64,000 nt of DNA, taken from assembly GCA_963555705.1 (NCBI GenBank), contig OY743181.1, forward strand, positions 23,068,513 to 23,132,512. Direction: 5' to 3'. Both the position numbers and the translations under genes were made by a program. Positions 42,421-64,000 of the stretch are shown one piece after another. The DNA is from Ligustrum vulgare. Lineage: Eukaryota; Streptophyta; Magnoliopsida; Lamiales; Oleaceae. The notes under the pieces are model-generated. The model ran no database searches. It was not told where the DNA came from and was given only the letters and a program-made list of their open reading frames with translations. Position 1 is the first letter of the stretch. The number at the start of each line of letters is the position of its first letter.

Positions 42421-42624
42421 ATTATAATATTTTGAATAAAATTAACGAATAATGAATTTATTCTAAGATTTTAATTTATTTTTTATTGAGATTTTTTTAA
42501 AAATAAGTTATATTATGTCACTTTTTTAAAAAGGTGACAAAATTATTTTAAAAAGTGATAAAATCACTCAAAAATAGCACTCAAAATTTAAAAAGTATTT
42601 TTACTTCCTAAAAATTTTTAAAAG

Positions 42625-42796
42625 TGTTACAAACTAGAGAGAAAAGATAGAAAAGTAGAAACACCAATATACTTGTATATTTTATTATGAACCAGACCCT
42701 CATATATATAGGAAGAATAGAGATATACAAAGTAATAATGTCTAGGTTTATAGGGGTATAATTGTCATTCAATAAAAGGAGATATTATTTACAACA
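42625..42796 (-). repeat. 3' LTR of N1
   Basis: 172 bp; aligns with 57159-57333 along its length. Confidence 0.8.
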
Positions 42797-42826
42797 CTCC
42801 TCCTTGAATAACATATTATAAAATAT

Positions 42827-43205
42827 CTGCCTCGTTAAAATCTTGTTTGATAAAAATCCAATGGGAAAAAATATCAAATGAAGGAAAAAGTGTACAGTTA
42901 TTCTTGAAGTATTAATATGAATACTGCCTCGTTAAAACTTCACCAGGAAAACCCAATGGGAAAAAACATTGGCTAAGGAAAAATAGTACAGCTACTCCTC
43001 CTAGTGTTGATCACTGTAAATCATCGAGTAGATGCATCCCAATCTTATGAACTGATTTCTTGAACGTAGATGTTGGCAATACTTTTGTGGATAAATCAGC
43101 TATATTGTCACTTGAGTGAATTTGTTGAAAATTTTGGAGTATTTTGATACTGCCTCGTTAAAACTTTGTAAGAAAAACCTAGTGGGACAAAACCTGATCG
43201 AAGTA
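42827..43205 (-). repeat. Tandem blocks near the 3' end of N1
   Basis: Three imperfect copies of TGCCTCGTTAAAA..AAACCxAxTGGGAxAAAA at about 42827, 42925 and 43151; a fourth lies at about 51630 beyond the nested insertion. Each is followed by a purine run and, in most, a CTACTCC(C/T)CCT stretch. Confidence 0.7.
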
Positions 43206-44307: not shown

Positions 44308-45112
44308 TGATGTGATCCAGACCACGGATACAAGCCCGCACAAAGATCCGTTGAAGATCAAAGGAGGACCGATGACTCGATTGCAAGCAAAGAGGGCCAA
44401 TGAAGCAATGGAAAAGTTAGTTCAAAAAACAATGGCCAAAACAATGTTCGTGTCATCAAAAGAAGCAAGTTCCATGTTGGGACCGAGCCAAAACGAAGAG
44501 TGGATCAACCTCATTCAAGCCGACGAAGAAAATTGCAATTTTTCAAAATTCACGGCCGTAACATATGGGAGCTCACGGCTGTAACGCAGCCTCAGATCAA
44601 AAACAAGATTTTCAGAAAATTGGCTTACGGACGTAAAAATAGTCTCACGGCCGTAATGTTGGAACAGAAAGGGCCTTACGGCCGTAAAGTGAAAGTTCAC
44701 GGCCGTAAATAATTATACGCGTGATTTTAGGAATTTTATTTATTTCCTTATTTTTAGGTATTTGTTTCCTAGTTTAATTAGAACTCTTAACCTAGATTTT
44801 GACCCTATTTATAGGGATGTAATTTTCATTATTAAAAACACAACTTTGATATTATAATTGAGAGACTATTCTGCTTTCACAATCTTATTCTTCATTGAAT
44901 AAAATCCGAACTTGCGAGTTATTCTTGTTTGTTCAAATTTCGGTGAGAATTATTATTGCTTGTGATCAAGAGGTCAATATATCCAGTGATTGTATTGGTT
45001 GCTTGGTTCAATTAATTTTAATTGGATCCATAAATCGTGGTTCTTGGCGTTCTTGGGTCGATTTCAATATTTTGTGGGTTGCGTAGCTACAATTGCTACG
45101 TAGTTTGCATCA
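44308..45112 (+). repeat. 5' LTR of gypsy element C
   Basis: 805 bp. Six ACGGCCGTAA-type palindromes in three pairs at about 44551-44709. Confidence 0.94.
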
Positions 45113-45114
45113 TT

Positions 45115-45126
45115 TGGTATCAGAGC
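45115..45126 (+). promoter_or_regulatory. Primer-binding site of gypsy C
   Basis: TGGTATCAGAGC two bases after the LTR. A leader of about 540 bp without a gene follows. Confidence 0.9.
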
Positions 45127-45672
45127 TTAGGTTCCAAAAATCAAGGTTATATCTTTGTTTTTTTTTTCTTGAGTCTTCTTTAATCTTGTTCTTCGTGTTC
45201 TTCCAGTTCTTGAGTCTTTAATCCAAAAGGTGTCACAAAAAAATTCAATAGTCGTTATTTCCTTCGTTTGTTATCCAAATTAAATTTCGTTTGTTTCATC
45301 TTTTTTGAAGTTGAATTTTCGAGAAATCCAAAAAAAAAAAAAAAAAAGAAAAAAAAAATTCTCAGCCCAATTACAATAGCAGTTATTTGATTTCCAAAAA
45401 AAATATATTCTTGACTCAATCCTAGTTTCCATAAAAGTGTCAAGTTCTATATCGAGTCAAATTTCATTCTCTAAAGGTCTTCTTCAAGTTTTCCAAACAG
45501 TTCATAGAATTCTCACTCTTACTCGATTTGAATCATTCGGGCTTAAACTTGTTTGAGTTCGGGTTCGTTCTTTGAAGCAATTGGGGTGAAAGCCATTGAG
45601 TGGAAAAAGACAGAGAGGTGAGATCAATAGAGGGTAAAAGCCAATTTTGAGTGATACACGAGTGAAATACAC

Positions 45673-47529
45673 ATGAGGCATATAATATTTAGCTTTAGGA
45701 TGTCTGAACAATCTGCTACTACAAAAAACAACGATCGAGTCAACATGACGGAAGAGATGGTACAACGGTTTAAGCGGTTGTTTGGGGATGTGTTAGGTAG
45801 ATTAGAAAGGCTTGAGCAACCTCGAGAAGTGCCTAATGCCCGTAGGCAAGGTGGGCAAGGTCGTAGAGTAGAGGGGATCGATGAGAATGAAGAAGGTAGT
45901 GATTTTGACGATAGAGTAGTTAGGCATGGAAGAAGGGATAGAGATCTTGGTGGTGATAGGATGGATGGTAGTATGAGTAACATCAAAATGACAATTCCGT
46001 CATTCAAGGGTAGGAGTGATCCGGAAGCATACCTAGAATGGGAAAAGAAGATGGAATTAATTTTCAATTGCTACACTTATTCGAAAGAGAAAAAGGTTAA
46101 GGTAGCTGTACTTGAATTCTCCGATTACGCTATTACTTGGTGGGATCAATTGGTGACTTCTAGGAGGAGGAATCGCGAGAGGTCCTTTAGTACTTGGGAT
46201 GAGTTAAAAGCTATCATGAGAAAGAGGTTCGTTCCTAGTCATTACCATCGGGAGCTTCATCAAAAATTACAAAGTCTATACCAAGGATCAAAGAGTGTGG
46301 AGGATTATCATAAGGAGATGGAGATGTTGATGATTAGAGCTAATGTAGAAGAGGATAGGGAGGCTACGATAGCTCGATTTTTGAATGGGTTGAATAGGGA
46401 TATAGCTAATGTGGTTGAACTGCAACATTATTTGGAGATGGAAGATATGTTGCACATGGCTATAAAGGTGGAGAAGCAAATAAAGAAAAAGGGAACAGCA
46501 AGGTATCAATCTGGTTCTAATTCTTCTTGGAAGCCGGAGTGGGATAATAAAGGAGATGAGACTGTTTCTAAAGGGAAGTTTGAAGCACCAAAAGGGAAGT
46601 TTGAGGCACCAAAAGGGAAGGAGGAACAAGCTAATAAACTCGTACCTAAAGGGGAACCTCAACCATCTAGGAGTAGAGACATTCAATGTTTCAAATGTTT
46701 GGGGAGAGGACATGTGGCATCTCAATGTCCTAATAGGCGAGTGATACTTGTACGAAAGGATGGAGTCATGGAGAGTGATAGTGAGGAAGAGGATTATAGC
46801 GATATGCCCGCGTTGGAGGAAGTATGTGATAATGAGGATGTGTTATCCAGGGAGCATGGCGAGTTATTAGTGGCAAGGAGACCTCTTAGTGCTCAAATCA
46901 ACACGGATGATTTGGAACAACAACGGGAGAACATATTCCATACACGATGTCGCATAAATAATAAGGTATGTAGTATGATTATTGATGGTGGTAGTTGCAC
47001 TAACGTCGCTAGTACTATACTTGTTGAAAAATTAGGATTACCTTTGTTAAAACATCCTAAACCTTATAGGCTTCAATGGTTAAATGATAGTGGAGAAATT
47101 AAGGTGAATAGGAGGGTGTTGGTGAATTTTTCTATTGGTAGCTATGTGGATGAAGTTATGTGCGATGTGGTACCTATGCATGCCGGGCACATTTTGTTGG
47201 GTAGGCCTTGGCAATATGATAGGAAGGTCACGCATGATGGGTATAAAAATAGGTATATCTTTACCAAATGGGGAAAAACCATTACACTTTCACCATTGAC
47301 ACCATCACAAGTGTATGAAGATCAAATAAAACTGAAAAATGATGAAGAAAAAAGAGTAAAGGAAAATGAGAGAAAGAGAGTTGAGGCCACGACCTCGGAA
47401 AAAGGAGAGGAAAAGAGAGTTGGAGTCACAACTCCAGAAAAAGGAGAGGCGAGAGAAAAAAAAATGTTGGGGTGCATGCCTCAGAAAAAGGAGAGGGAGC
47501 GAAGAGTGCCAGAAAAGAAAGAAAAATGA
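45673..47529 (+). CDS. Gypsy C Gag-protease
   Basis: 618 residues, uninterrupted. Gag core SDPEAYLEWEKKMELIF, YAITWWDQLV, RFVPSHYHRELHQKLQ; zinc knuckle CFKCLGRGHVASQCP; protease MIIDGGSCTNVAS and HILLGRPWQYDRK. The C-terminal tail holds short repeats (KRVEATTSEKGE / KRVGVTTPEKGE). Start may be the internal Met of MSEQSATTKNN (about 45700). Pol overlaps its end in the -1 frame, as in element B. Confidence 0.92.
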   Translation: MRHIIFSFRMSEQSATTKNNDRVNMTEEMVQRFKRLFGDVLGRLERLEQPREVPNARRQGGQGRRVEGIDENEEGSDFDDRVVRHGRRDRDLGGDRMDGSMSNIKMTIPSFKGRSDPEAYLEWEKKMELIFNCYTYSKEKKVKVAVLEFSDYAITWWDQLVTSRRRNRERSFSTWDELKAIMRKRFVPSHYHRELHQKLQSLYQGSKSVEDYHKEMEMLMIRANVEEDREATIARFLNGLNRDIANVVELQHYLEMEDMLHMAIKVEKQIKKKGTARYQSGSNSSWKPEWDNKGDETVSKGKFEAPKGKFEAPKGKEEQANKLVPKGEPQPSRSRDIQCFKCLGRGHVASQCPNRRVILVRKDGVMESDSEEEDYSDMPALEEVCDNEDVLSREHGELLVARRPLSAQINTDDLEQQRENIFHTRCRINNKVCSMIIDGGSCTNVASTILVEKLGLPLLKHPKPYRLQWLNDSGEIKVNRRVLVNFSIGSYVDEVMCDVVPMHAGHILLGRPWQYDRKVTHDGYKNRYIFTKWGKTITLSPLTPSQVYEDQIKLKNDEEKRVKENERKRVEATTSEKGEEKRVGVTTPEKGEAREKKMLGCMPQKKERERRVPEKKEK

Positions 47530-50500
47530 GTTTCTACGCAAAAAGGAGTGAAATCAAAAAGGCATTCATGGAAGAACGATCGATGGTTCTTCTGCTGTAC
47601 AAGGAATCATTCATTGCATTTGATGAAATTAACAAATCCCTCCCTAGTTTGGCTATTTCTTTATTGCAGGAATTCGAGGATGTGTTTCCAGATGACATAC
47701 CTAGTGGGTTACCACCCATTCGAGGTATTGAACATCAAATTGATTTTATACCTGGAGCAGTCATTCCAAACCGACCAGCTTATAGGAGTAATCCCGAGGA
47801 GACGAAGGAGCTTCAAAAGCAAGTGGAGGAATTAATGAGTAAGGGGTACATAAGGGAAAGCATGAGTCCATGTACCGTACCCGTGTTACTTGTGCCGAAG
47901 AAGGATGGGACGTGGAGAATGTGTGTTGATTGTAGAGCCATCAACAATATAACGGTAAAGTATCGTCATCCTATTCCTAGGTTAGATGATATGTTGGATG
48001 AATTGCATGGCTCTAGCATATTTAGTAAAATTGACCTTAAGAGTGGTTATCATCAAATTTGAATGAAAGAAGGAGATGAGTGGAAAACTGCTTTTAAAAC
48101 TAAGTATGGACTGTATGAATGGTTAGTAATGCCTTTTGGACTTACTAATGCACCTAGCACATTTATGCGTTTAATGAATCATGTTTTACGTGCATTTATA
48201 GGTAAATTCGTTGTAGTTTACTTCGATGATATCTTGATATATAGTAAAACTTTGAATGAGCATGTGGAGCATGTTAGGTGTGTGCTTGTGGTTTTAAGAC
48301 AAGAGCAACTTTTTGCTAATTTTAAAAAGTGTGATTTTTGCATGAAAAAAGTTGTATTTCTGGGTTATGTGGTTAGTACTAAAGGAATAGAAGTAGATGA
48401 AGAAAAAGTCAAAGCTATTTAAGAATGGCCAACACCTAAAAGCATAACTGAGGTTAGGAGTTTTCATGGCTTGGTTAGTTTTTATAAGCGCTTTGTTAAA
48501 AATTTTAGCACGATTGTCGCACCACTCACAGAAATTGTCAAAAAAAGTGTAGGGTTTAAATGGGGTGTAGAAAAGGAGCATGCATTTGATACTATCAAAA
48601 ATATGTTATGTAAAGCACCGGTTTTATCACTTCCTAACTTTGACAAGGCTTTTGAGATTGAATATGATGCCTCAGGGCTAGGCATTGGAGCTGTTTTAAT
48701 GTAGGATCAAAGGCCAATCGCCTATTTTAGTGAAAAAATGAAAGGGGCTGCACTTAATTATCCCACATACGACAAGGAGTTATACTCACTTGTGCGCGCT
48801 TTGGAAACATGGCAACATTACTTGTGGCCACGGGAGTTCGTGATACACACTGATACACACTGGTTTTAAGACAAGAGCAACATTACTTGTGGCCAAGGTG
48901 GGTAGAATTCATCGAAACATTTCCCTATGTCATCCGATACAAACAAGGTAAGGAAAATGTGGTGACAGATGCATTGTCTCGAAGGTATGTTCTTTTAAAT
49001 TCTTTAAATTCTAAATTACTTGGATTTGAATACATTAAGGACATGTATGTTAGTGATCCGGACTTTTCTAGTATTTATGATTCATGTGGTAAAGGGGCTG
49101 TGGATAAATTCTTTAAACATGATGATTATTTATTCCAAGAAAATAAATTGTGTGTCCCTAGGTGCTCAATGAGGGAGTTACTTGTGAGAGAGGCCCATAG
49201 TGGAGGTCTAATGGGTCATTTTGGAATTAAAAAGACCATCGAAATCCTAAGTGAACATTTCTATTGGCCTAAGATGAAGATTGATGTGGTTCGGGTTTGT
49301 AATAGATGCATTACTTGTAAGAAGGCTAAATCTAGGATTAAACCCCATGGATTATATATGCCTTTACCCGTCCCTAGTGAACCTTTGGTCGATATCTCTA
49401 TGGATTTTGTTTTGGGACTACCTAGGACTAAGAAGGGAAGAGATTCAATTTTTGTGGTAGTAGATTGCTTTAGTAAAATGGCACATTTCATACCATGCGA
49501 CAAAACTGATGATGCTACTAACATAGCTGAAATTTTCTTTCGGGAAGTCGTACGCTTACATGGGGTTCCTAAAAGTATTGTCTCGGATAGGGATGTTAAG
49601 TTCCTTAGTCATTTTTGGAGGGTCTTGTGGAACAAATTAGGTACAAAACTACTTTTCTCTACAACTTGTCACCCACAGACCGATGGAAAAACCGAGGTAG
49701 TAAACAGGACAATGATTCAATTGTTACGCACGATAATCAATAAAAATCTGAAAAATTGGGAAGAGTGTTTACCATTTATTGAATTTGCATATAATAGGGC
49801 TATACATTCTACTACTTCTTATTCACCATTTGAAATTGTTTATGGTTTTAATCCGCTAACACCATTGGATTTAATTCCTTTACCTGTGAATGAACGTAGT
49901 AGTCTAGATGGAAAGAAAAAGGCTGAGATGGTTAAAGCACTCCACGACAAGGTGAGGTTGGCGATTGAGAAGAAAAATGAACATTATGCTTCGCAAGCTA
50001 ACAAAGGAAGAAAGGGCATCATATTTGAACCCGGTGATTGGGTTTGGGTACATTTGAGAAAGGAGCGGTTCCCAAAACAACGCAAGTCAAAGTTACAACC
50101 ACGAGGAGATGGTCCATTCCAAGTGATTGAAAGGATCAACAACAATGCCTATAAATTAGATCTTCCTAGTGAGTATAATGTTTCGGCGTCATTTAATGTT
50201 TCTGATCTATCTCCGTTTGATGCAGGTACAGATTCGAGGTCGAATCCTTTCGAAGAGGGAGGGGATGATGTGATCCAGACCACGGATACAAGCCCGCACA
50301 AAGATCCGTTGAAGATCAAAGGAGGACCGATGACTCGATTGCAAGAAAAGAGGGCCAATGGAGCAATGGACAAGTTAGTTCAAGAAACAATGGCCAAAAC
50401 AATGTTCGTGTCATCAAAAGAAGCAAGTTCCATGTTGGGACCGAGCCAAAACGAAGAGTGGATCAACCTCATTCAAGCCGACGAAGAAAATTGCAATTTT

Positions 50501-50542
50501 TCAAAATTCACGGCCGTAACATATGGGAGCTCACGGCCGTAA
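47472..50542 (+). pseudogene. Gypsy C Pol: reverse transcriptase, RNase H, integrase
   Basis: RT from SKGYIRESMSPCTVPVLL to YFDDILIYS (about 48220-48246). Stops at 48060-48062 (TGA), 48420-48422 (TAA) and 48702-48704 (TAG). RNase H is damaged near 48841-48900, where part of the domain is replaced by copied fragments. Integrase from 48887 is open to 50542: [61 protein letters not shown]. The frame extends into the 3' LTR with [11 protein letters not shown], then into the palindrome array. Confidence 0.92.
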
Positions 50543-51071
50543 CGCAACCTCGGATCAAAAACAAGATTTTCAGAAAATTGGCTTACGGCCGTAAAAATAG
50601 TCTCACGGCCGTAATGTTGGAACAGAAAGGGCCTTACGTCCATAAAGTGAAGGTTCACGGCCGTAAATAATTATACGCGTGATTTTAGGAATTTTATTTA
50701 TTTCCTTATTTTTAGGTATTTGTTTCCTAGTTTAATTAGAACTCTTAACCTAGATTTTGACCCTATTTATAGGGATGTAATTTTCATTATTAAAAACACA
50801 ACTTTGATATTATAATTGAGAGGCTATTCTGCTTTCACAATCTTATTCTTCATTGAATAAAATCCGAACTTGCGAGTTATTCTTGTTTGTTCAAATCTCG
50901 GTGAGAATTATTATTGCTTGTGATCAAGAGATCAATATATCCCAGTGATTGTATTGGTTGCTTGATTCAATTAATTTTAATTGGATCCATAAATCGTGGT
51001 TCTTGGCGTTCTTGGGTTGATTTCAATATTTTGTGGGTTGCGTAGCTACAATTGCTACGTGGTTTGCATCA
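50266..51071 (+). repeat. 3' LTR of gypsy element C
   Basis: 806 bp, about a dozen differences from the 5' LTR. Palindrome array at about 50507-50667. Confidence 0.94.
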
Positions 51072-51989
51072 GGTGAGTTAATAGTTTAGAACGTAGTAAT
51101 AAATCCGGTAATTGAACGAGAGATAGAGATATACTATTGTTATTATTGCAGTCGTGTGTAAATTCTTTTGTTTATTGCATCTAGATAAGGAATATTCAAA
51201 CCCGCTGGAAAGATACATGGTTGACTTATTTAGGTAGAATTGATTTAAACTCGAGAGAGGAATTTTAATATAAATTAGTGAATTCGACCGAGTACATAAT
51301 TAGGAAATAGAACTGGAATTGGAGTTAATATAATTGGTTAGGTGAAATCGGGATTCCCAACTACATTACAATCATCTTTAAAAACAAAACAATCTTGTTT
51401 AATTTTAATTCTTTAGTTTATGTTCTTAATTTTAATTTTAATTCCCAAATTCTCTTCATTTGTTCAAATAGAGTTACAAACTAAAATATTTCGGTACTTA
51501 GTAGCAGTCCCTGTGGGAACAATAATCCAGACTCTTAGGTCCACTATATTATTTCTCACGACCCGTACACTTGCGGGGGTATTTCGCATTGCGAGATATC
51601 GGTGAACAATAACAACTACCTATTAAAAACTTGTTAGGAAAACCTCGTCAGGAAAACCCGTGGGACAAAACATCGGCTAAGGAAAAAAGAATTTAGCGCA
51701 TATTAGCTCCCCCTCATAGGAACATTACAATTATTTAGATATTGTATATAATTATTTCAATTATTAATCGGTGCAATATCGAATATGTTCACCAAACATA
51801 TAGATATGGCACATATCTCATATTATTTGTTCTTCAAATATAAATTCAATTATTCCTTTGAACTTGAAGAACTATAAAATATTTTCAATCATTTGAATAT
51901 GCTGCAATGAGCCATGTTCTATAATCAATATTCATCAATACATTTAATACAGTTCTCAAATCTGGAAGTGACTTATTCATTTCAATGAA

Positions 51990-54900
51990 CAATAAACTTA
52001 TTCACTTTAGGTGAATAATTAACCACGAATTTGAATTTGAAAATCAATTACCACGATTTTCAAATATTATTTATAATAACGGTACATCTCAATTCCAACA
52101 CTTTGTCATATAGATTCATTTGTACCATTCTAAGGTTATATGATCAATCACATTCCATTACAAAGTGATTCTATTCCAAACATATTAAATATTCAGATTG
52201 CATAGTATATGTATACTTTGATCAAACAAGTTTCTTAAAAACTTGAACTAAATATCTCAGACATATATAATCCCTCAAGGATTATACTGTATGCTTCAGG
52301 CATCGTATATGTTTCACATTGCAATTGTCAAATTGCTACCACCAAATTTAAGTTGTGAAACTTTAGATAGGTAACGATTCCTATACTTCAAATAGATCTT
52401 CTCTAATCATTTCACCGCAATCCTAAAGTATTGAAGTATTGATTACCCTTTATAATCTCACTCAATGGTACTTCAAAGAATACTCCCAACATACCGAGTT
52501 GATGATCATATATTTTGATATCACTCATTAGTACATCAAAGAGTGCAAGCTAGTAATTAGAGTCAATCATCTTTCATTATATACATTTCTAATAATTATA
52601 TATTTATTGACAACTATTATGCTTTTGTCAGGAAAATAAAATATTACATTTGTGCCAGATCTTTGAACATTTGTTGCGCAACAAGTCGTGTATTACGACT
52701 ATATCTATAGGTATTTTACTGACTTTACACTTTTAAGTGTTTGGACTTCACGTCCCAAAACTTCAAGTTTTGTAGTAAATTTAATTTAGCCTGAATGCAT
52801 ACTTTTGCTAACTATTTTTATGTCGATTTTTTTTGACATAATTTCTTTTATTATCCTCGCTATCATTCATATTATGATGCGGCTAGCTTCGCAATTTGCT
52901 TTTGCATAAGTGCTTTATAAAGTGTGCGACACAATTATCATCTCAATTCGATTTCTTTCCCCACAAGACATAATTACAGAGATCTTAGTTTTTCAATATT
53001 TCAAGTACTTGAACCTTTTCTGGAAATTTACAATTAATTATGTCAATAAATACTCTCTTACGAGTATATGCCTCCTCAATAAGACCATCATAATCATTTG
53101 CTCGATTTTTATTTATTTGGGGATCTATGTTCGAATCAGATATCGCTACTCTTCAAACGTGTCATATATCAATATAAGATAGAGCATATGTAGCTAATAT
53201 ATGATATTTTATCAATCTCTTATAGATATTGCATCTTATAATTATGTTATCTTTTTACCTTTTCATTCGTAGTTTCAATCGAAATTCTGGTTCATATTAT
53301 CAATTGCGAGGATATATATAACGTAATATAATGCTTTGTACAATTTAAAGCTACTAATCTTCCCCCTAATGCTGAGAAAATTGTTCAAACAAATTGACAA
53401 TCATTTTTTCGGCGTTATAAAATATCACTGATTTAGGATATATGTTCAAACCACTCATTTATTCTCAACATTCTTTATTTTCCATTTCAGTGCATTGTGG
53501 TGGATCAGTTGCACTATCAAAAAAATTAGGCTCTAACCATAAGCCAATTACAATGGGGAGAACTATGATATTGACATGATGCGTAATAGAATTTCATAAA
53601 CAAAAAGAGAAGTATTTTGTTCTCAATTAAATTAATTGGAGGAATTTAACAAGCAAAAATGTTAAATAATTTATCGACATCCCAACTAACACTTATTAAA
53701 ATGTTGAGATTCATGCCCACTAGCATTATCAAGACACATTCTTGATTACTTAATCTGAAGATTATGCTCATAATTTAAAATTTGAGCAATAATCTTGCAA
53801 ACATCAGGTTGCGAACACCATGCAATCATCTAGTATATGTATCAAATTTATTAGGTACAAATAATATTCAGACGATCAACGTGGAGGAAAAAAATTAGAT
53901 GGAAAAATTAGGCTCTAACCATAAGCCAATTACAATAGGGAGAACTATGATATTGACATGATACGTAATAGAATTTCATAAACAAAAAGAGAAGTATTTT
54001 GTTCTTAATTAAATTAATTGGAGGCATTTAACAAGCAAAAATGTTAAACCATTTATCGACATCCCAACTAACACTTATTAAAATGTTGAAATTCATGCCC
54101 ACTAGCATTATCAAGACACATTCTCGATTAATTAATCTGAAAATTATGCTCATAATTTAAAATTTGAGCAATAATCTCGCAAACTTCAGGTTGCGAACAC
54201 CATGCAATCATCTAGTATATGTATCAAATTTATTAGATACAAATAATATTCAGACGATCAACGTGGAGGATGATGGGGCCCCATGTATCACCCTAATTAT
54301 TTTAAGAAATATAAGGAATTTAATCCCTATTTTAGTTAGTGACGGTCAAAAAATTTCATGAAAGAGAACAAAATATCATATATGATTGAATTGAAGAATC
54401 TTTTGGTTCTTTATTGAGTATCCATTTTAATTTCGCATAATTATTGATCCAGTGATGGTCCAACTGGTCATGTCAAATAATAAAATCAAATTGAACTTCT
54501 GGTTCAATATAAGATATAATTCAATGATTAAACATTATATAATCATATATCATTCAAGTAGTCAAACTAATCAATGTCATTATGACATTTGTTATATGTT
54601 TTCTTTCAGAGATAAACATAAACTCAAATGAGATATTATTTAAAACATATGCTACGTTTTTATTACTCATTCAAAATAAATTTGTCAATATTCTTCTGGA
54701 ATATTGAAATTGCAATATCATACTCTTCAAGAGCAGATAATATTATGTTAAAAATATTGTGCTTATTCAGGAGCAACGACATATTAAACTCGAATATTCA
54801 ATATGAAATAAGATTTTCCTTCTTCAAGAGCAAAAATGAAATATTCTTTTGGAATATTTTATAAAATAACTCAAATGAGATATTTCTAATGCTGCAATAT

Positions 54901-56680
54901 TCTGCTGGAATATCGATTAGATCAATATTCCTCAAGAATATTGATTTAGATTGATACAATATTCTTAATATTCTTCTTGAATATTGTGCTATTTTATTGG
55001 ATATACATTCAAACAAATGTTTATTGTAAATTGGTATAATTAAAAGGATATGATAATATCGAATAACTATACCGTTTTATATAGAAATTCAAAGTTAAGA
55101 GAATACTAACATTTATTTTGAAAAGAAAAATAAATTTTTCCTTGTAAATTATTTTGCCTAGAATTTCTTGTCTTTACTTGGTTGAAGGGAAAATAATTTT
55201 TCTTTTGTTACAACTTAATAAAAGATTTGTGAACAGAAAACAAAATTTACTAACTCATGTAATATTCTTCTAGAATATTACTCATAGTGTTGTGTTACTT
55301 CAAGAACAACAATTAATTCTTCATAATAGATAGATTTGCGATTAATATTTTTTTAGAATATTAATTTTATTGTTGTGCTACTTCAGGATCAACAATATAT
55401 TTGATCTAACAAACTATGTTATTCATGAATAAGCAACATAATAAATCTAAATATTTTCCCAGAATATCAAATTGATAATATATATCTCATGATATTGGGC
55501 TCTTCGTGAGTAAATTATATTCCGTTAGAATATTTCATATGGAAATTATGATTCTTCAGGAATCATCATAAAAATATATTATTTTACATCATAATAATCT
55601 TCTGGATTATTAATAAATTCGAATTTCTATTAGCGAGAATACAATATTTATCACATGAGCAATAAAATAACATTCTTCTAAAATATTGAAACGTAGCAAT
55701 AACGCAATATTCTTCTGCAATATTGATTCGAACCTCATTCAATTATAACAATAATAAACACCTATTGTGCTACTTAGGAGAAAAAACGAATTATTCTTCT
55801 GAAATAATGAAATAATTATATTTCTCAAATTGCGATAAAATATTCTTCTGGAATATTTATCTAATATGTATTGTATTTCTTCAAGAACATTAACACCATA
55901 TTCGTTTAAAAATATTTTAAATTATGCTTTTTCAGGAGCATTGGGTCAATATTCTTCTAGAATATTAAAATTGTAATAGACTGCTTTTCAAGAGCAAGTA
56001 ATATTATATATACATGATATTACTTAATACTTGGGTTACAAGACAAAGATAAAATCTAAAGATTACAAAAATATTGGATTAATATAAACAAATAGATATA
56101 CTACAAATAAACTGTGAATATGGTTATTCAATATTTGCTAATTTTGATTCTAGGATTTTAGGCTGATCTTGTGCGGCACAAATGGTACAGAAAAACATAA
56201 TTGATATAGGCAAAAAGAGACAATGACAAATTTTTCATTACCTTTTAGAATGAAAATTAATGTGTTGGAACAAGATATGTCTTCTTCCGCTAACGAACTT
56301 ATTTCGATTATTCAAAAATAATAAATCAATATTCTTCTAAAATATTGAAAATTATAATTTATGCTCTTCATGAGCAAATAATATTCTTCTGGAATATTAA
56401 TTATAATGTCGTGTTACTTTAGGAACAACAACAAACTATTGTTAAATATTTTAGATATTTGCTCTTCTGGAGCAATTGAATAATAAATCTTTCAAAATTA
56501 TGCTCTTCGGGAGCAATTAATATTCTATACGAATATTATTATAATAAAAATTGTGCCACTTCAGGACCAACCATAAATTATTCTTCTGGAATATTGAGAA
56601 TCAAAATTCATGCTCTTCAGGAGGAACTAATATTCTTCTGGAATATTAATGACAATGTTGTGCTACTTCAAGAGCAGCAC
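51990..56680 (-). repeat. Array of small hairpins with near-constant loop inside N1
   Basis: In element sense (minus strand) many units read stem - CAGAA or CTGAA - stem. Checked by eye with perfect stems: 51998-52018 (8 bp), 52227-52245 (7), 52266-52286 (8), 54687-54705 (7), 54921-54945 (10), 54967-54985 (7), 55261-55279 (7), 55558-55576 (7), 55602-55622 (8), 56459-56475 (6). Stem sequences differ (AATATTC, TAATAATC, ATGATTC, TTGCTC and others) while pairing holds. No coding frame. Confidence 0.8.
53521..54284. repeat. Tandem duplication, period 382 bp, in N1
   Basis: Two copies starting AAAAATTAGGCTCTAACC at 53521 and 53903 and running to GATCAACGTGGAGGA (53888 and 54270). High identity with scattered substitutions. 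The unit covers decayed integrase-like sequence. Confidence 0.9.
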
Positions 56681-57158
56681 AAATTATTTATAATATATAA
56701 TATAAATAAATAAATAAATAAATAAAAGGATAATAATATGTAATTGAACTCACTTGACGACGTGTATAATCAAAATTGCAATATATTTTTCTCTTTGTTT
56801 GCCCCTGTGCACTCAAGGGAATGATTAAAAAATAATAATATGCACAAATTTCTAAAAGAATTCGAAAAGAGAATTCAATTGGTGTACATGATATTAGTTG
56901 GAGAAGAATTGTGATTCTTTCAACAATTGGAGAAGACTTGAGCGGAAGAACAAATTGGGATTCCAGGTTTCAATAATTAGAATTCGTATTTCAGCAATTT
57001 CAACTGAAAAAGAATTCGGCTACATTGATTTCGGAACTTCGAAAAAATCATAAGCCACCAAATTAATTTTGATGCACATGATAATATATTCTAACTAATA
57101 TTTTGATATCTGAGATTTTGGAAAAAAATTCTAACTCAATTTGGTAGAGACTATAATG

Positions 57159-57333
57159 TGTTATAAACTAGAAAGAAAATGATAGAAAAGTAAAGACACC
57201 AATAAATTTGTGTATTTTATTATGAATCAGTGCATCATATATATGGGAGAATATGGATATACAAAGTAATAATGTTTAGGATTATAGGGTTAAAATTGTC
57301 ATAATTCAATAATACAATATAATATTTACAACA
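57159..57333 (-). repeat. 5' LTR of N1
   Basis: 175 bp, TGTTATAAAC...TTTACAACA; element runs leftward. Confidence 0.8.
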
Positions 57334-58676
57334 AAAATGTATTTTTGTAAATTGTCCAAAAATAAGAGTATTTGAGTAAGAACCCCAAATCTAGTATCAA
57401 AATCAAAGTAAATGTAAAACGTGAAATTTTATTATTTTTTTCATAGATGGGAGTTTTCTGTCATTTTTGAAAAGGTGGAGTGTAGTCAAATTATAAAAAG
57501 AAAAAATAACTCTCGTAAAGGAAAAAAGAAAATTTCCTTATCTAAATATAAATTAAGAATAAAGGAAATTAGAGAAAATATTATTTCAAATCTAGCATAA
57601 ATATTTACGTAATAATTAGGAACAGAACGACAGTTAATAAGAGTAGCTTCTCTTTTTCCATGGGAGGGATTTTGTGTGACTATGAAAGACAACGTTGAAT
57701 GGTTTCCATAACGGAGCAATTTAGTTCCATAAAGTGGTCGGTAGCCAATCTTGGTAAAAAGATAATTATACGTGAATAAGTAAGCTCTAAATTTTTATTT
57801 TGTTCTCGATCAAACTTAAAATTAAATTATTAATTAATTAATTAATTAATTTTGTTTAAAAGTAAGAAAAATCAACTTCTCAGAACATATTTGGGAATTA
57901 AAGTATCTTTTTCTTTTTAGTTAAGCTTCTTGAAAATTTTAACTTGAGATATAGTGAATTCCTAAAGAAAATTATTATAAGTCGTAGAAAATAGTGTAGA
58001 TTTATTATATCATGCAAATTATGGTAGAGGCCAACATTAGTACACGGGGAAATCATATCAAGAACACTTGAAATGTGGGGGAAAAAAAATAGTGTTCTAA
58101 AAAGCGTAATGTGTGACGAAACAGTTAGGTCGAGCGTTAAGCTTAAATGCATCCAAGCGCGAAAAAGGGCGGTAGTGCTCGAGTAAAGCGAGGGTAGAGC
58201 TCGAAGCGGCGATGCCAAGTATCAAGCTTAAGCGCGCCTAAACGTAAATGTAAGTGGGTTTTTTAGAACACTGGAAAAAAATAATAATAATTCAAATGAA
58301 GAAAACGTTTAAAAAAAAAAAAGGACTATTAATTAGCACTTCAATGTGTGACATACAAAGAATTTAGACGAATATCAATTTTCTCACAAGACAGATGTCA
58401 TATTTGGTGGAACCATGCCAAAAACGAGATGTAAATGTAACACACATGGGTGGGTGGGGACGGAGTTAGGAATTTTTGTATCATGGGGGACATATAGAGG
58501 TAATATAATTTACGAAAAAAATGACATTTCTTAATAGTGGGGCTTGTTTGGGAGTTAAAGTTAGATTTGAATTAAATTACTAAACTGTCCTTTATTTGAG
58601 TAAATTTGATCTTTACAAATTTTATTGTAGAGACAAAAGTGTAAAATGAACAAAATAGTCTTTAATATTTGAAAAC
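57334..58676. other. Spacer between N1 and N2
   Basis: AT-rich with (AATT)n near 57830-57855. No gene recognised; short frames on the minus strand are Phe/Leu-rich noise. Holds the small MITE at 58091. Confidence 0.5.
58091..58272. mobile_element. Small MITE with AGTGTTCTAAAAA ends
   Basis: AGTGTTCTAAAAA at the left, TTTTTTAGAACACT at the right. Flanks GGAAAAAAAAT and GGAAAAAAAT are a likely 9-10 bp TSD. GC-richer core with AAGCGCG and GGGCGG motifs. 182 bp. Confidence 0.7.
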
Positions 58677-58884
58677 TGTTATAAATAATGTATATATGTG
58701 AATGACATAACCATTATATCCCTGTAAACTTTACAATATTACGATTGTGCCATTGTCCACTCCTATAAATAGGAGCCTATACTTACCAATTTATTACACC
58801 AATTCTTGAAGAGAAATTCTCTCCTCTAAACTCTCTCCATTTCTCTCTCTATGTTGTTCTTATGATTTCGATGATTTTATAACA
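58677..58884 (+). repeat. 5' LTR of N2
   Basis: 208 bp; TATAAATA box at 58764-58771 and a pyrimidine-rich R/U5 part (TCTCTCCATTTCTCTCTC). The ATAACACGTTATCAGCACGA junction is a motif I recall from plant copia leaders. Confidence 0.7.
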
Positions 58885-59017
58885 CGTTATCAGCACGAGT
58901 CTCTAACCAATTGAGTAATAACGGGAGTATGCTCTACAGTTGCATCTAAATGATGAGCCTCTGTATCAGAAACCTGATTATTACTAACCAATGTTTCCTT
59001 TTCTCTCAAACTGAAAA

Positions 59018-59380
59018 AGAATGATTCTGGCCGATCCAGATATCCGATCGACGATCGGCCACCGCCATCAGAACGGGCTTGTCAAGGAGAAGACTCGCCT
59101 AAAATTTGGCGCAGAACCAACGGCTGAAACAAAAGATATCGACCGAAGAAGAAAATCTGAAAAACTGTGCAAAAACAGATATCTGACCGAAAATTGAAAT
59201 GCTTATTCCGGACGATTCTGAACTCCGATCGACGATCGGCCAGAGGCATATCAACGGGTTTTTCTAGGAGAAGACTCGAATGAAATTTGGCGCAAATCCA
59301 ACGGTTAAAACGGAAGTTATTGTCCGGAGAAGAAGATGCTGGCGGACTGAAAAATGATGATTCCGGCCAAACGGTTGATC
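59018..59380 (+). repeat. Degenerate tandem repeat, unit about 155-180 bp, in N2 leader
   Basis: Copies start near 59018, 59198 and 59352. Shared blocks: CCGATCGACGATCGGCCA, AGGAGAAGACTCG, and AAATTTGGCGCA..CCAACGG. GC-rich sequence continues to about 59515 (GGCGGCGGCGGCGCG). A frame at 59287-59616 has no recognised domain. Confidence 0.75.
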
Positions 59381-59824
59381 TTTTGGAAAATCGGAGACCA
59401 CCGGCATGTTCAGGACGCCGAGGCACATATTATGGTGATGGGTCAATTTTTCCGATCACCGGCGCGTGGCGGCCGGCGGCGGCGGCGCGTGGCGGATCCG
59501 GCGATGACGAAAGGCAGTTTGTCCGTTTTGATGAATTGGATTTTTCTATGATCTTATTTTTCTGTTTTGTGCAGTTTTTAAAATATTCCGGCGGTCGAAC
59601 ATGGCGGTTTTCTTAAAAACTGTTTTTGGAGCAATCCTGACGAGATTTTGAACTTCGGACCAAAAGTAAGTTTGTTCTAAATTAAATTTTAAACCTATTG
59701 ACGGTTTCAATTTATTCATATGAGCAATATATTAAAATATGGACGATTTTGCCCTTAATAATACATACAAGTATAATAATCGTAAATTAACGATTAATAT
59801 GTGATCAATTGAATTATATTATGC

Positions 59825-60000
59825 TGCCACCTACATGGTTGGTTTTACCACCTACATGGTTGGCTTTACCCGGTTTAATTATTTCATTATGTCGATTCCG
59901 CCTATATGGCCGGTTTAATTGTTTCATCTCGTTGATACCGTCTATATGGCTGGTTTAATTATTTCATCACGTTGACACCGCCTATATGGTCGGTATATCA
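59825..60000 (+). repeat. Short tandem repeat, unit about 45 bp
   Basis: Repeats of CCGCCTATATGGCCGGTTTAA-like units separated by TTTCATxxxGTTGA, four to five copies. Confidence 0.8.
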
Positions 60001-60139
60001 ATTGAATACATATAAACACCTCAGTTGTTGGTTAATTCTAACATATTAGAGGGTTGTTGTCAACATATATACTTGGTGGTATAACCCCAGTATCGTTATT
60101 GTTAATATATATATACAATATTATTGTTATTTGATACTT

Positions 60140-60540
60140 CATTAAATGATACCAGAAGTTATCAATACTAAAGTTAGAAAATATTTTATCAAATGATACC
60201 AGAAGTTATCATTACCAAAAGGTTGATAAATATTAATAAAATGTTTTATCCAATGGTACCAGAAGTTACCAATATCTGAATTTGAATGGGTGGATGAAAA
60301 TTATTCAACAAGAGAATGTTGATGTATGATAAGATAATATCACATGATAGCACGGATATAGCTAATGTGAAAATAATCTCATCAGTATTATGAGATGAAT
60401 GTTAGATGATAAGTGCCTGGAAAAGTTCTTGCACGAGCACTTATATATTCCAGAAGAAGTACATATTTACTCCAGAAGAAGTAAAAATTATCATCTAAAC
60501 ATACTGAAATGATATTATTATTGCTCCTGAAGAAGCATAA
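60140..60540 (+). repeat. Hairpin array in N2, part 1
   Basis: Units with CCAGAAGT or CCTGAAGA loops: 60147-60164 (TGATA/TATCA), 60192-60213 (AATGATA/TATCATT), 60254-60271 (TGGTA/TACCA), 60466-60485 (TTTACT/AGTAAA), 60522-60537 (TGCT/AGCA). Stems differ and stay paired. Confidence 0.8.
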
Positions 60541-60597
60541 ACGAGACATACATGCAAAATGCAAAAGGGGAAAACATTTATGATCCTCAAAATTAAA

Positions 60598-60815
60598 GAT
60601 GTGTTTCGGGAGTAGCCGTATCCTACCACCTCTGACCTTTTGAGGAAATAAAGAAAAAAGTGTGTTTCAAGAGTAAGAAATACTCCATACTCTACCACTT
60701 TAAATCTTTGAGGTACACAAGATTAATACATTGATAAAATCCTAGAAATTTATGGTGTGTCTCAAGAGTGAGAATACTCCGTACTCTACCACCACCTATT
60801 CTAGAGTTCACAAAG
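60598..60815 (+). repeat. Three tandem copies of a unit of about 75-90 bp
   Basis: Copies near 60600, 60662 and 60752 share GTGT(T/C)TC(A/G)(A/G)GAGT..ATACTCC.TACTCTACCAC and TTTGAGG-like ends. They end just before the antisense ORF segment. Confidence 0.7.
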
Positions 60816-60894
60816 ATAAATTTACATTAACCGGACTCCATTTTCGCTTGATTCCCCTTCCTTGCGACCAATCTATCTTTACTCCTGCTGGATC

Positions 60895-61461
60895 TTATAT
60901 TGGAATATATGATTGCAACTTATCCAGCAGTTCCTCGATAGTAGGAGCAGAAATAAGGATTCTCCTAGAAAATGGAGATATGAATCCCTGTTCCACAGCA
61001 TAATCAAGAAATGTTAGCAAACCATCAAAGAAATTGTTTACATTTAAAAGCCCTATAGGCTTAGTATGGAGATCTAGTTGAGCCCATGAAGTAATATTAA
61101 AGATTTCTTCTAAAGTACCAAAACCTCCAGGCAGGGCTATGAAGGCATCAGAACCATATAACATGCAAGTTATGCGTTCATGGATAGATAAGGTTTGTAC
61201 TTCATGCCCTCGTGTTTTGCCTGCAATATCAGCTAAAGGAGTAGGTATAACACCTATCACTCTTGCTTTCTCTACTAGAGCGGATTGTGAAACACAACCC
61301 ATCAATCCACTGCTACCTCCTCCATACACGAGAGTGATACCTTTCTCTCCCAATTTCTTTCCTAAATCCACGGCTGCTTCTAGATACCCAAAACCTTTTC
61401 CCACTTTTGATCCACAAAATACACAGATAGTTTTGATCTGTCGAAATTTTGGTCCTTCCAT
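60895..61461 (-). CDS. LOG-like cytokinin riboside 5'-monophosphate phosphoribohydrolase, intronless
   Basis: 188 residues, no stops. LOG enzymes release active cytokinin bases from their nucleotides in the cytosol. Visible: Rossmann start ICVFCGSKVGKG (12-23), VYGGGSSGLMG (45-55), HER (94-96), the signature PGGFGTLEE (111-119), then SWAQL, KPIGLLNV and GFISPFSRR. Slightly shorter than typical plant LOGs (about 210-220). The position after the conserved Arg, usually Lys, is Ile, and the signature has Phe where Tyr is usual. Plant LOG genes have several introns; this one has none and lies antisense inside N2, so it is a captured or retro-copied gene rather than an ordinary locus. Expression and activity are unknown. 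A nearby ORF upstream on the same strand (61711-62256) may belong to the same captured segment. Confidence 0.88.
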   Translation of the reverse strand: MEGPKFRQIKTICVFCGSKVGKGFGYLEAAVDLGKKLGEKGITLVYGGGSSGLMGCVSQSALVEKARVIGVIPTPLADIAGKTRGHEVQTLSIHERITCMLYGSDAFIALPGGFGTLEEIFNITSWAQLDLHTKPIGLLNVNNFFDGLLTFLDYAVEQGFISPFSRRILISAPTIEELLDKLQSYIPI

Positions 61462-61710
61462 TTTTGAAAGTAAAGAAGGAAAATGTTATTTTGGGATGCA
61501 TGAACTATGAAAAATGTTTGGCTATTTAAAACCGAAAAACTTCACTATTTACTGGTCGTTTTTCGAAAAAGTGAAGATTTACTTTTGACAAAATCATCCT
61601 ACTCACCTTTCGGCGATTTAATATTTTTAACCAGCCTTTATCAAAACTCGTGAAAGGAAACAGAAAAAAATATTTTATATGTGCATATATATCAAATGAT
61701 TTACCTTGTA

Positions 61711-62256
61711 TTAATGCTGCATAGCCAAAGCATCATTGTTTATAACAGCATGGCAAACAGGATCTTTTGCTATTATATTTTTGAGACTATATCTCTCTTT
61801 ATCGCTGATGAATTTAGCCCATAAAGATAGTAGCTCACGCTGCACATATCCACTAGGGTGCGTCTCAAGAGTCAATCGGATATCATCCAATGACTCCTTA
61901 CTCAGTCCACCCTTAATGAAGTCTATCTTATCATCTCGATTTATGGATGAATATCCTATTGATTTACAACGGGTATCACATGTCCATCGAGCACATTTGT
62001 AGCAACTATTTAATCTTTTTGCTCTTCGCTTCTTTGCAAAAGTACTCTTACCTAAGCCAGGCTTGTGCTTAGAAAATGAATCTGGTAATTCACCAGCTAA
62101 TCGAACTTTTGCTTCGATCAACCAGCGAACATCTTCTGGCATGCCATGATCCATCAGCAACCTCAATCTTTCGAGCCTAATTCGATAAATTTTTCTCAAA
62201 TCATTTACTGGAAGATTGGAATAATATTTGCGAATATTTGAAAGTATGATATCCAT
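61711..62256 (-). CDS. Basic Cys-finger protein, resembling flexivirus nucleic-acid-binding proteins (possible endogenous viral gene)
   Basis: 181 residues, no stops. Centre: GLGKSTFAKKRRAKR (67-81), an Arg/Lys-rich tract, directly followed by C85-x2-C88-x4-C93-x3-C97. This basic-tract-plus-finger arrangement is the hallmark of the small 3'-proximal nucleic-acid-binding proteins of carlaviruses and vitiviruses (Betaflexiviridae, Viral_NABP family), where they act as RNA-binding proteins and silencing suppressors. Residues 1-60 are helical-looking and charged; residues 110-181 have no recognised motif. It is longer than the usual viral protein (about 90-140). Start is the first Met of the frame. 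Lies 250 bp upstream of the LOG-like ORF on the same strand. The viral link is motif-based inference; a host or element-encoded zinc-finger protein is the alternative. Confidence 0.5.
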   Translation of the reverse strand: MDIILSNIRKYYSNLPVNDLRKIYRIRLERLRLLMDHGMPEDVRWLIEAKVRLAGELPDSFSKHKPGLGKSTFAKKRRAKRLNSCYKCARWTCDTRCKSIGYSSINRDDKIDFIKGGLSKESLDDIRLTLETHPSGYVQRELLSLWAKFISDKERYSLKNIIAKDPVCHAVINNDALAMQH

Positions 62257-62539
62257 TTTTTGATGGATCTAGCCTTCTTCCCAAATCATCTATTTAAATG
62301 CATTATTCAACGCGTAAAAGAGCGACGGCTCCGCGTGTCAGTGATATGGATTCCATCAAGAAATAATGGAATAAATTATTGAAAAGGTGAGATAATATGC
62401 CATTACCTTTTTCGATATAAGGGAAGATTTGGCGACAAGATTGAGATTATGAGATATTTCCTTGGATATTGTACCTGATTTTTCGGTATACTAAAAGTAA
62501 TAAAGGTATACTGATTTGAACTATATAGAATACTGATGA

Positions 62540-63400
62540 AATAAATGTTGTATTGAACCAGAAGTTCATACATATGTACAAGTGAAATATCTTATTGAAC
62601 CAGAAGTTCATACGTACAAGTGAAATATGTATATAGTATGAACCAGAAGCTCATAAATGAAATATACATTGTATTGAACCAGAAGTTTAGCGATATTGTA
62701 TTGAATCAAATATTCATACATAGAAATGAAATAAAACCGTATAGAACCAGAAGTTCTATAATAAACGGTTAGATTATCAAAAGTTCCAAATTATTTTCTA
62801 TGAGAATAACTTATTCAGAAATTGTTTATCATACAACAATATTCTATGTCAAACAGGGAATAGCTCAAGAAGCTTTATTATTTGTAAAAGTGCGATATGC
62901 ATACACTCCACCAAAGCGCACTGAGATATATGATTGAAATTACATCCCTAAAAGAATGACATGTGTTATGGCATTTTAGCCGATTGATAATATTTGAGAA
63001 CATTATGGTGAAAACACGCCTGAAGCGTAATTATGCCTGAAGCATAATGACTATCGATTCCAAAAATAAATATCTCTTGAATGATTGAAATGATTCCTTT
63101 GAGGCTAAATACTCAAAGTAAGTAAAAGGGACATAGTCAAATGATAAGATATTCAGGTACCTGATGATAGAACATATAAAGAGATCTCTCCACGTTATAT
63201 TGAGATGGAATCGATAAATAAGTCGACTGCATACCCTCTTATGAAATAAGATTGATGAAATCATAATTCTTTGGCCAAGTATGAAACCCTAATGTAGGGA
63301 TTATTGTTCAAGGACCTGAAGTCCAAATGCTTAAATGTGTAAAGCCAGTAATTATATGTACAAATGAAAAATATTTCACAGTCGTAAAAGACGACTAGTT
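62540..63400 (+). repeat. Hairpin array in N2, part 2
   Basis: 62554-62568 and 62596-62610 (TGAAC/GTTCA), 62637-62655 (TATGA/TCATA), 62740-62760 (TATAGAAC/GTTCTATA, 8 bp), 63016-63028 (ACGC/GCGT), 63030-63048 (ATTATGC/GCATAAT), 63312-63324 (GGAC/GTCC), all with CAGAA or CTGAA loops; 63380-63396 (AGTCGT/ACGACT) has an AAAAG loop. Confidence 0.82.
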
Positions 63401-63799
63401 GCGCGCGAAATTTTTCATAGAACTGGCATGACATATGGTGGATAGACTATAGTCTAAATCACTAGCTTGAGCTCCTTGATATACCAATGAGTGAGATCAA
63501 AATGTATGATTCTCATCTCGGTACTTTGGGAGTATTCTTTGATGTACCAGTTGATCGCGGTACGTTGGGATTTCAAGTAAAATGATTGTAGATTATATGT
63601 CGAAATTGATATCTATTTCAATGATTGATTATGCTCCTGCAAAATTAGAAATTGCAGTTTATAAAGTGTAAGAACATACATGTATAAATCATTGAAAGAT
63701 TCAATATGCCCAGATTAGTATCACTATAGAATAATACAAATGACTCCATGATATAATATGTTGAAAGTGAAATTGGAGTGTACTATTTATGACATCTGG

Positions 63800-64000
63800 G
63801 AAATTGATTATTCACTAGAAGTGAATACGAAAATGAATATTCACCAGAAGTGAATTTGAAATTGATTATTCACTAGAAGTGAATTTGAAAATGAATATTT
63901 AATTATTCACTAGAAGTGAAAGATGCAATCTATGAAAGTGAATTATAGATTTGATTATTCACCAGAAGTGAATTCTAAATTTGATTATTCACCAGAAGTG
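63800..64000 (+). repeat. Hairpin array in N2, part 3
   Basis: At least five complete tandem-like units ATTCAC-(C/T)AGAA-GTGAAT, at 63809, 63839, 63868, 63906 and 63957, with spacing of about 29-50 bp; a sixth runs into the window end. Here stem and loop are both conserved, so this part is a recent local amplification. Confidence 0.85.

What the first reader, a model, noticed from the sequence alone, without database searches (positions are those of the whole stretch)
51990..64000. Array of covarying hairpins with a near-constant CNGAA five-base loop in a pair of LTR elements
I checked 28 units by hand in N1 (minus-strand sense) and N2 (plus-strand sense). The loop is nearly always CAGAA or CTGAA in element-sense RNA. 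Stems of 4-10 bp differ between units (AATATTC, TAATAATC, ATGATTC, TTGCTC, TATAGAAC, ATTATGC, ACGC, TTTACT, GGAC) and remain self-complementary. Constant loop plus compensatory stem change is the signature of selected RNA structure, not simple sequence decay. The array appears in both elements in the same sense orientation. I know of no described plant retroelement with such an array. A packaging, Gag-binding or RNA-stability role would be guesswork.
Basis: seen in the sequence. Interest (0 to 1): 0.93.

Follow-up and report, generated by a model that had tools for sequence, protein, structure and literature searches.

The report
Same-cap RNA hairpin array in retroelements
Two related plant jumping genes carry dozens of small hairpins whose tips are nearly identical while their stems differ and stay self-matching, which suggests repeated docking sites for a protein that recognises the element's RNA.

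Summary
In two related plant LTR elements (N1, minus sense; N2, plus sense) the 7-mer CYWGAAG occurs 42 times in sense and once in antisense, against 1.4 expected; the 42.5 kb used as control is at chance. At 32 of 42 sites the three pairs outside the closing C-G are all Watson-Crick (background 4.4%). Counting each different 5' stem triplet once, 14 of 17 find their exact partner, 0.74 expected. A covariance model from 13 N2 units finds 14 held-out sites at E<0.5, all on N1's sense strand and none elsewhere; without structure it finds one in N1. So stems covary around a fixed asymmetric cap. Many N1 units are tandem copies, but the array as a whole is not one palindrome copied.

I found no gag-pol in N1 beyond an RNase H-like tail. 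Best explanation: a multivalent RNA recognition array in non-autonomous Copia-type elements, most likely packaging sites for Gag supplied in trans. That function is inferred. No copy outside the window could be examined, and neither folding energy nor wobble counts prove RNA-level selection. It differs from Sirevirus palindromes and matches no Rfam family at threshold.

The parts
57159..57333 (-). N1 5' LTR (TGTTGTAAAT...TATAACA)
   Evidence: 84% identical to 42621-42796 over 180 bp; ends read by eye
52000..56680 (-). N1 hairpin array: 22 exact CYWGAAG caps; 46 of 55 sites with at most one cap mismatch have at least 3 of 5 stem pairs, 21 of these 46 with the exact cap
   Evidence: 14 held-out covariance-model hits at E<0.5, all minus strand
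51640..51745 (-). GGGGGAG plus a block like Copia 3' untranslated sequence, right after the array
   Evidence: read by eye; similar blocks near 43230 and 42990 before the 3' LTR; label from recall
43011..43109 (-). 32-residue remnant like a Copia RNase H C-terminus (DNIADLSTKVLP...), the only pol remnant seen in N1
   Evidence: translation; weak match to the tail of the window's own Copia ORF 33098-34870 (E 0.1)
42625..42796 (-). N1 3' LTR, preceded by a purine tract
58677..58884 (+). N2 5' LTR (TGTTATAAAT...TATAACA), followed by the presumed primer-binding region CGTTATCAGCACGAG (primer tRNA not identified)
   Evidence: aligned with N1 LTRs; sequence
60145..60545 (+). N2 hairpin cluster a: 6 exact caps, 5 of them with the one-base 3' offset; includes a compensatory A-T to G-C change between copies at 60152/60199 and 60259
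62540..64000 (+). N2 hairpin cluster b: 14 exact caps; runs off the window
63360..63554 (+). Block homologous to N1 52653-52462 (about 71%), placing both arrays in the same position of one element lineage

Best explanation
N1 and N2 belong to one Copia-type LTR lineage in which the space normally used by gag-pol is filled, at least in N1, by an array of short RNA hairpins. Each hairpin is a variable self-complementary stem capped by the same 7 nt, C-[YWGAA]-G, in element sense. Shown: cap constancy, strand asymmetry, stem covariation between units, shared position in both elements. Inferred: the cap is read by a protein that docks on many units at once, the stem only presenting the cap. The likeliest reader is Gag (nucleocapsid) made by an autonomous relative, so the array acts as dispersed packaging signals that let a coding-poor RNA compete for particles. 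Local tandem duplication makes new units, and selection keeps cap and pairing while stem sequence drifts.
For: Cap 42 sense to 1 antisense against 1.4 expected; control DNA at chance. 32 of 42 units with three perfect stem pairs; 14 of 17 distinct triplets with exact partner against 0.74 expected. 19 non-redundant units: 59 of 95 pairs, above all 5000 permutations. N2b units: 79.2% of cells paired against 59.1% shuffled (0 of 500 as high) and 25-39% in slid registers; covariation score 0.572 against 0.202 (0 of 500); two coarser measures are weaker (28 and 16 of 500 as high). Model transfer N2 to N1 needs the structure: 14 held-out hits at E<0.5 with it, one N1 hit at E<5 without. Compensatory change within a tandem family: TGATA..TATCA to TGGTA..TACCA. 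Three stems lie at matching places in N1 and N2 (by eye). Cap loss in N1 (21 of 46 hairpin-like sites exact) fits neutral decay since insertion (0.51 expected from 84% LTR identity), as if the source had uniform caps. Spacings show no reading frame, so no repeated peptide. No gag-pol match better than E 0.1 to the window's own Copia and Gypsy ORFs. The packaging role rests on analogy: dispersed stem-loops sharing a coat-protein recognition motif (PMC6281560, passages).
Against: No protein partner, expression data or further family copies were examined. Stems are weak (-3.8 to -6.4 kcal/mol for five plain units, -1.7 for one offset unit), and the one TAGAA unit folded closes an extra pair to a three-base loop, so the five-base loop is not uniform. 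Fold z-scores are modest (means -1.16 to -1.35 in sense against -0.38 and -0.63 in two control stretches) and not sense-specific: N1 -1.35 sense and -1.23 antisense, N2b -1.32 sense and -2.70 antisense. Wobble test not significant (12 to 6, p=0.24). The model missed one of its own 13 training units (63012) and scored N2a units only at E 0.56 or worse. At the three matching places the exact cap is present in N2 at two and in N1 at none. Known retroviral and Ty1 packaging regions are compact 5' domains, not kilobase arrays (PMC5454406, passages). N1 is old and interrupted, so lost coding sequence cannot be excluded, and N2's right end lies outside the window.
Confidence: 0.4

Rival explanations
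1. Same hairpins, RNA-level, but read by a host RNA-binding protein (for example an SR-type splicing or export factor that likes exposed GAAG), giving retention of the full-length RNA, nuclear export or stability rather than packaging.
For: Cap exposes GAA(G) at the hairpin tip; strict sense orientation; array lies in a region without sense ORFs of 100 aa in N1. SR preference is recalled, not looked up.
Against: GAAG-type sites would not need covarying stems and a fixed closing C-G; no binding data.
Confidence: 0.22
2. Selection acts on DNA: oriented palindromic sites bound by a DNA protein, or hairpins extruded in single-stranded cDNA during reverse transcription, for instance to guide strand transfer or pausing.
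For: Perfect complementarity serves DNA equally; antisense folds as well as sense; G.U excess not significant. Palindromic boxes of Sireviruses are discussed with cis-acting transcriptional activators (PMC2829016, passages).
Against: A double-stranded site read as a palindrome should not tolerate 14 different half-sites; 42 to 1 orientation is unusual for DNA sites.
Confidence: 0.15
3. Neutral origin: tandem duplication of a few palindromes plus intrastrand template-switch correction during reverse transcription, which makes arms perfect without selection.
For: Clear tandem copies; one stem triplet accounts for 8 of 22 N1 exact caps.
Against: Arm correction does not explain a constant asymmetric cap over 14 different stem triplets, nor the five-base spacing preference, nor the same cap in both elements with different stems.
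Confidence: 0.13
4. Chance or composition artefact of AT-rich DNA.
For: The array region is 25-34% GC in 2-kb steps, so weak palindromes are common.
Against: Shuffles, same-window controls, antisense strand and held-out model search all contradict it.
Confidence: 0.02

Closest known systems
Dispersed packaging signals of small RNA viruses (MS2 in PMC6281560, passages; STNV and HBV papers seen only as listing and start of abstract)
   Same: Many hairpins across one RNA, variable stems, shared short recognition motif
   Different: Those lie in virus genomes and bind a capsid protein; here the array is in an LTR element, tandemly amplified, and the partner is unknown
Large non-autonomous LTR derivatives (LARD, recalled; the term was met only in the listing)
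   Same: LTRs and presumed primer site with little or no gag-pol and a long non-coding interior
   Different: No hairpin array with a constant cap is known to me there (recall); N1/N2 are Copia-like with LTRs of about 172-208 bp
Sirevirus repeated palindromic motifs (PMC2829016, passages)
   Same: Many palindromic copies in a plant Copia element, in two elements also beside the env-like gene
   Different: Sirevirus boxes have a CGG-CCG core (except Tnd-1) and form CpG islands in the LTR; here stems vary, the cap is fixed, the sites are internal and AT-rich
Ty1 and retroviral 5' packaging domains (PMC5454406, passages)
   Same: Stem-loops near the 5' end of LTR-element RNA, linked to Gag binding and packaging
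   Different: Few, non-repeated structures in a short 5' domain

Membership tests
LTR retrotransposon, Copia type | Two similar LTRs flanking the element | tested here: met
   N1 LTRs 84% identical; N2 only 5' LTR in window
LTR retrotransposon, Copia type | Copia-order pol or its remnant | tested here: inconclusive
   Only a 32-residue RNase H-like tail, E 0.1 to the window's own Copia ORF
Non-autonomous large LTR derivative | No gag-pol between LTRs | tested here: inconclusive
   No sense ORF of 100 aa in 51640-57158; longest sense stop-free stretch 93 aa there and 54 aa in 42625-43320; no gag-pol match better than E 0.1; but N1 is old and interrupted and N2 is cut by the window end
Dispersed packaging signals | Multiple hairpins with shared loop motif and variable stems | tested here: met
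Dispersed packaging signals | Specific binding by capsid or Gag protein and effect on packaging | not testable with these tools
   needs binding and packaging assays
Sirevirus repeated palindromes | CGG-CCG core in the LTR, CpG island | tested here: not met
   Cap is CYWGAAG, internal, AT-rich; definition from passages of PMC2829016
Curated RNA families (Rfam) | Match at the family's gathering score | tested here: not met
   window 42400-64000: two matches with E up to 1, SNORA79 (27.3 bits, needs 55) and mir-8356 (24.6, needs 70)

The most novel reading that the evidence does not exclude
A lineage of plant LTR elements replaced its coding interior with a self-amplifying array of identical-cap RNA hairpins that recruits Gag made by others: dispersed packaging signals as the main cargo of a parasitic retroelement, with unit copy number tunable by tandem duplication.
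Probability: 0.28. Interest if true: 0.85.

Novelty: new variant of a known kind. Interest (0 to 1): 0.7.

Why it matters
How non-autonomous plant LTR elements get their RNA into particles made by others is, as far as I know, largely open. A repeated, strongly covarying hairpin with a 7-nt cap gives a concrete, testable recognition element and a searchable signature (CYWGAAG on a stem, sense only) to link such elements with their helpers across plant genomes. Either outcome, Gag or host protein as reader, would be informative. In the searches made (open-licence PMC only, listings and passages) I saw no description of such an array.

Tried and rejected
Related DNA elsewhere: the primer-site pattern in viral contigs gave 0; the NABP-like protein gave no confirmed viral contig. 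Two hairpin patterns gave 11 and 2 viral contigs, none with an array: in the 13 loci L002-L014 at most 2 capped hairpins on a strand. The one genome-contig scan, spent on the NABP-like protein, gave one contig, L001, from a bacterial assembly but plant-like in content (my reading), with no capped hairpin. The window's own genome could not be searched (genome search did not complete).

Considered and rejected: heat-shock-type DNA sites (recalled consensus GAAnnTTCnnGAA; the GAAC and TCAC stem classes do not fit); repeated peptide (spacing shows no frame); known RNA family; miRNA-like precursors (stems too short, from general knowledge); Sirevirus boxes. An energy-based test of strand gave no support and the wobble test was inconclusive. 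The broadest covariation test, all 92 non-redundant YWGAA sites, is positive but not beyond every permutation (170 of 460, mean 136.9, max 173 of 5000). An alignment that included the offset units was not used for the model because MAFFT placed no gap. In one search two of eight ranges were cut too short by me at the 5' arm and say nothing. Sequence homology between N1 and N2 interiors was found only in the 3' part of the arrays. The relaxed-cap counts (68 of 85 sites in the elements against 76 of 343 in the rest with at least 3 of 5 pairs) include chance sites, since the baseline is 22%. Controls used window 1-42500; 42500-51640 was not among them. Model R2 (no structure) ran with default filters, R1 with filters off, so the comparison is not wholly like for like.
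Full report
What was checked. The region reads as plant nuclear DNA with nested LTR elements (an inference from its retroelement ORFs, and from plant homologues). Self-comparison puts N1's LTRs at 57333-57159 and 42796-42625 on the minus strand (84% identical), with nested elements between about 51640 and 43320 (limits by eye), including a Gypsy element with LTRs 44301-45130 and 50259-51089. N2 has its 5' LTR at 58677-58884 and runs off the window. The LTRs of N1 and N2 align with each other, and 52462-52653 is homologous to 63360-63554, so the two look like members of one lineage with arrays in the same place.

The hairpins are real. In N1, loop-5 hairpins with stems of at least 6 number 23 against a shuffle mean of 2.95; loops of 4 or 6 are at chance. 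Ranking six-mers against a dinucleotide expectation puts CAGAAG first in N2 (13 against 0.7) and fourth in N1 (10 against 0.8). The pattern C[CT][AT]GAAG occurs 22, 6 and 14 times in the sense strand of N1, N2a and N2b and 1, 0 and 0 times in antisense, expected 1.4 in all; in window 1-42500 it occurs 7 and 10 times on the two strands, expected 7.9 each. With the third cap base free, 34 of 43 sense sites in the elements have flanking stems at the set score, against 1 of 24 in 1-42500 and 0 of 2 in antisense.

The stems covary. Taking anchors by loop alone (YWGAA), the 92 non-redundant element sites have 170 of 460 pairs at stem positions 2-6 (permutation mean 136.9, z 3.5, max 173 of 5000, so not beyond every permutation), while 410 control sites (z 0.3) and 54 antisense sites (z 1.0) are near their means. 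With the closing C-G required, 19 non-redundant units give 59 of 95 (mean 31.4, max 49 of 5000). Counting each 5' triplet once, 14 of 17 have an exact partner against 0.74 expected. Pair counting on 13 N2b units (12 distinct) gives 79.2% paired cells against 59.1% in shuffles (0 of 500 as high) and 25-39% in slid registers; covariation score 0.572 against 0.202 (0 of 500); number of pairs with two-sided change 7 against 5.4 (28 of 500) and further pair types 14 against 10.6 (16 of 500) are weaker. The copies at 60152, 60199 and 60259 show one compensatory A-T to G-C change while the cap stays.

Independent transfer. A covariance model from the 13 N2b units was run over the whole window, both strands, filters off. 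It recovers 12 of its 13 training units at E up to 5 (63012 is missed). Apart from these, the hits with E below 0.5 are 14, all in N1 on its sense strand. Between E 0.5 and 1 come two N2a units (0.56, 0.99) and one hit on the opposite strand of the N1 unit at 51998 (0.8). The first hit outside the elements, 14230, has E of about 1. The same alignment without structure finds one N1 unit with E up to 5 (default filters, so not wholly like for like).

Copies and decay. Of 46 hairpin-like sites in N1 (cap with at most one mismatch, at least 3 of 5 stem pairs) 21 have the exact cap, near the 0.51 expected from LTR divergence; in N2 it is 19 of 22. This fits an active source with uniform caps and decay after insertion, but it is an inference, and the relaxed set includes chance sites.

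What it does. The cap is asymmetric, in sense only, and presented on stems whose sequence varies: the pattern of a hairpin read at its tip by a protein, many times per RNA. N1 shows no gag-pol: no sense ORF of 100 aa in the array and no match better than E 0.1 to the window's own Copia and Gypsy ORFs; that best match is the 32-residue RNase H-like tail. So packaging by Gag in trans is my leading guess at 0.4. Reading by a host RNA-binding protein, DNA-level roles and a neutral palindrome-correction origin remain. Results against the RNA reading: fold z-scores are modest and not better in sense than antisense, stems are weak and one TAGAA unit folds to a three-base loop, and G.U against A.C is 12 to 6 (p 0.24). 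At the three places where N1 and N2 stems correspond, the exact cap is present in N2 at two and in N1 at none.

What is known. Sirevirus palindromes differ in core, place and constancy (PMC2829016, passages). Dispersed packaging signals in RNA viruses are the closest working analogue (PMC6281560, passages). No Rfam family reaches threshold. Seven literature searches bearing on the hairpins listed nothing that I recognised as such an array; they cover open-licence PMC only, and I saw listings and passages, not whole papers. Two further papers were looked at by passages for leaders and antisense genes (PMC2576258; PMC11963269).

By-catch. Inside N2, antisense, lie a homologue of carlavirus nucleic-acid-binding proteins (61711-62256) and an intronless LOG-like ORF (60895-61461). 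The first has 335 homologues at E up to 0.001; 120 were listed, and the nine that carry an organism name are all flowering plants. An Orobanche protein joins both domains (P0021). In L001 the same gene sits next to a retroelement integrase ORF. LOG-type (YgdH) domains in plant LTR elements are in print (PMC9289625, passages); the pairing with the viral-type protein I did not see in the two searches made for it (listings).

Noticed in passing
window 61711-62256 (-): Intact 181-aa ORF homologous to carlavirus nucleic-acid-binding proteins (PF05515 E 3.4e-9, PF01623 E 2.4e-5), antisense inside N2; 335 homologues at E<=0.001, 120 listed, the nine with organism names all flowering plants. N1 holds no copy.
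   Followed up: partly
window 60895-61461 (-): Intronless LOG-like ORF (PF03641 E 4.9e-34) just downstream of the viral-type ORF; the LOG search returned 1204 proteins at E<=1e-40, and 37 of the 120 listed are Reevesia pubescens copies, as expected of a mobile-element gene. The window ORF is shorter than its 94% relative P0121.
   Followed up: partly
P0021, and protein pairs P0022/P0146 and P0017/P0204: One Orobanche gracilis protein contains both domains, and two pairs of NABP-like and LOG-like proteins are listed on contigs of equal length (8723 and 4511), suggesting the two genes travel together; contig identity was not verified.
   Followed up: no
L001:194-2347: Contig in a bacterial assembly, plant-like in content: integrase ORF (PF00665, PF17921; Gypsy type by my reading) followed by the viral-type NABP ORF in the same sense, so this protein may be an extra gene of a plant LTR element.
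   Followed up: partly
window about 62257-62420 (-): TATA-like TTTAAATAGA upstream of the antisense ORF pair, a possible own promoter (by eye).
   Followed up: no
window 60570-60830 (+): Three diverged copies of another repeat (gtgt(t/c)tc..gagta..tactctaccac) beside the antisense genes (by eye).
   Followed up: no
window 53521-54270: 368-bp tandem duplication, 96% identical, inside N1; one copy has the hairpin TCGCAA-CCTGAAG-T-TTGCGA, the other has a changed cap and stem.
   Followed up: no
window 59872-59997: Three tandem repeats spaced 40 bp, with a cgcctatatggccggttta-like core, in the N2 leader 5' of the hairpins.
   Followed up: no
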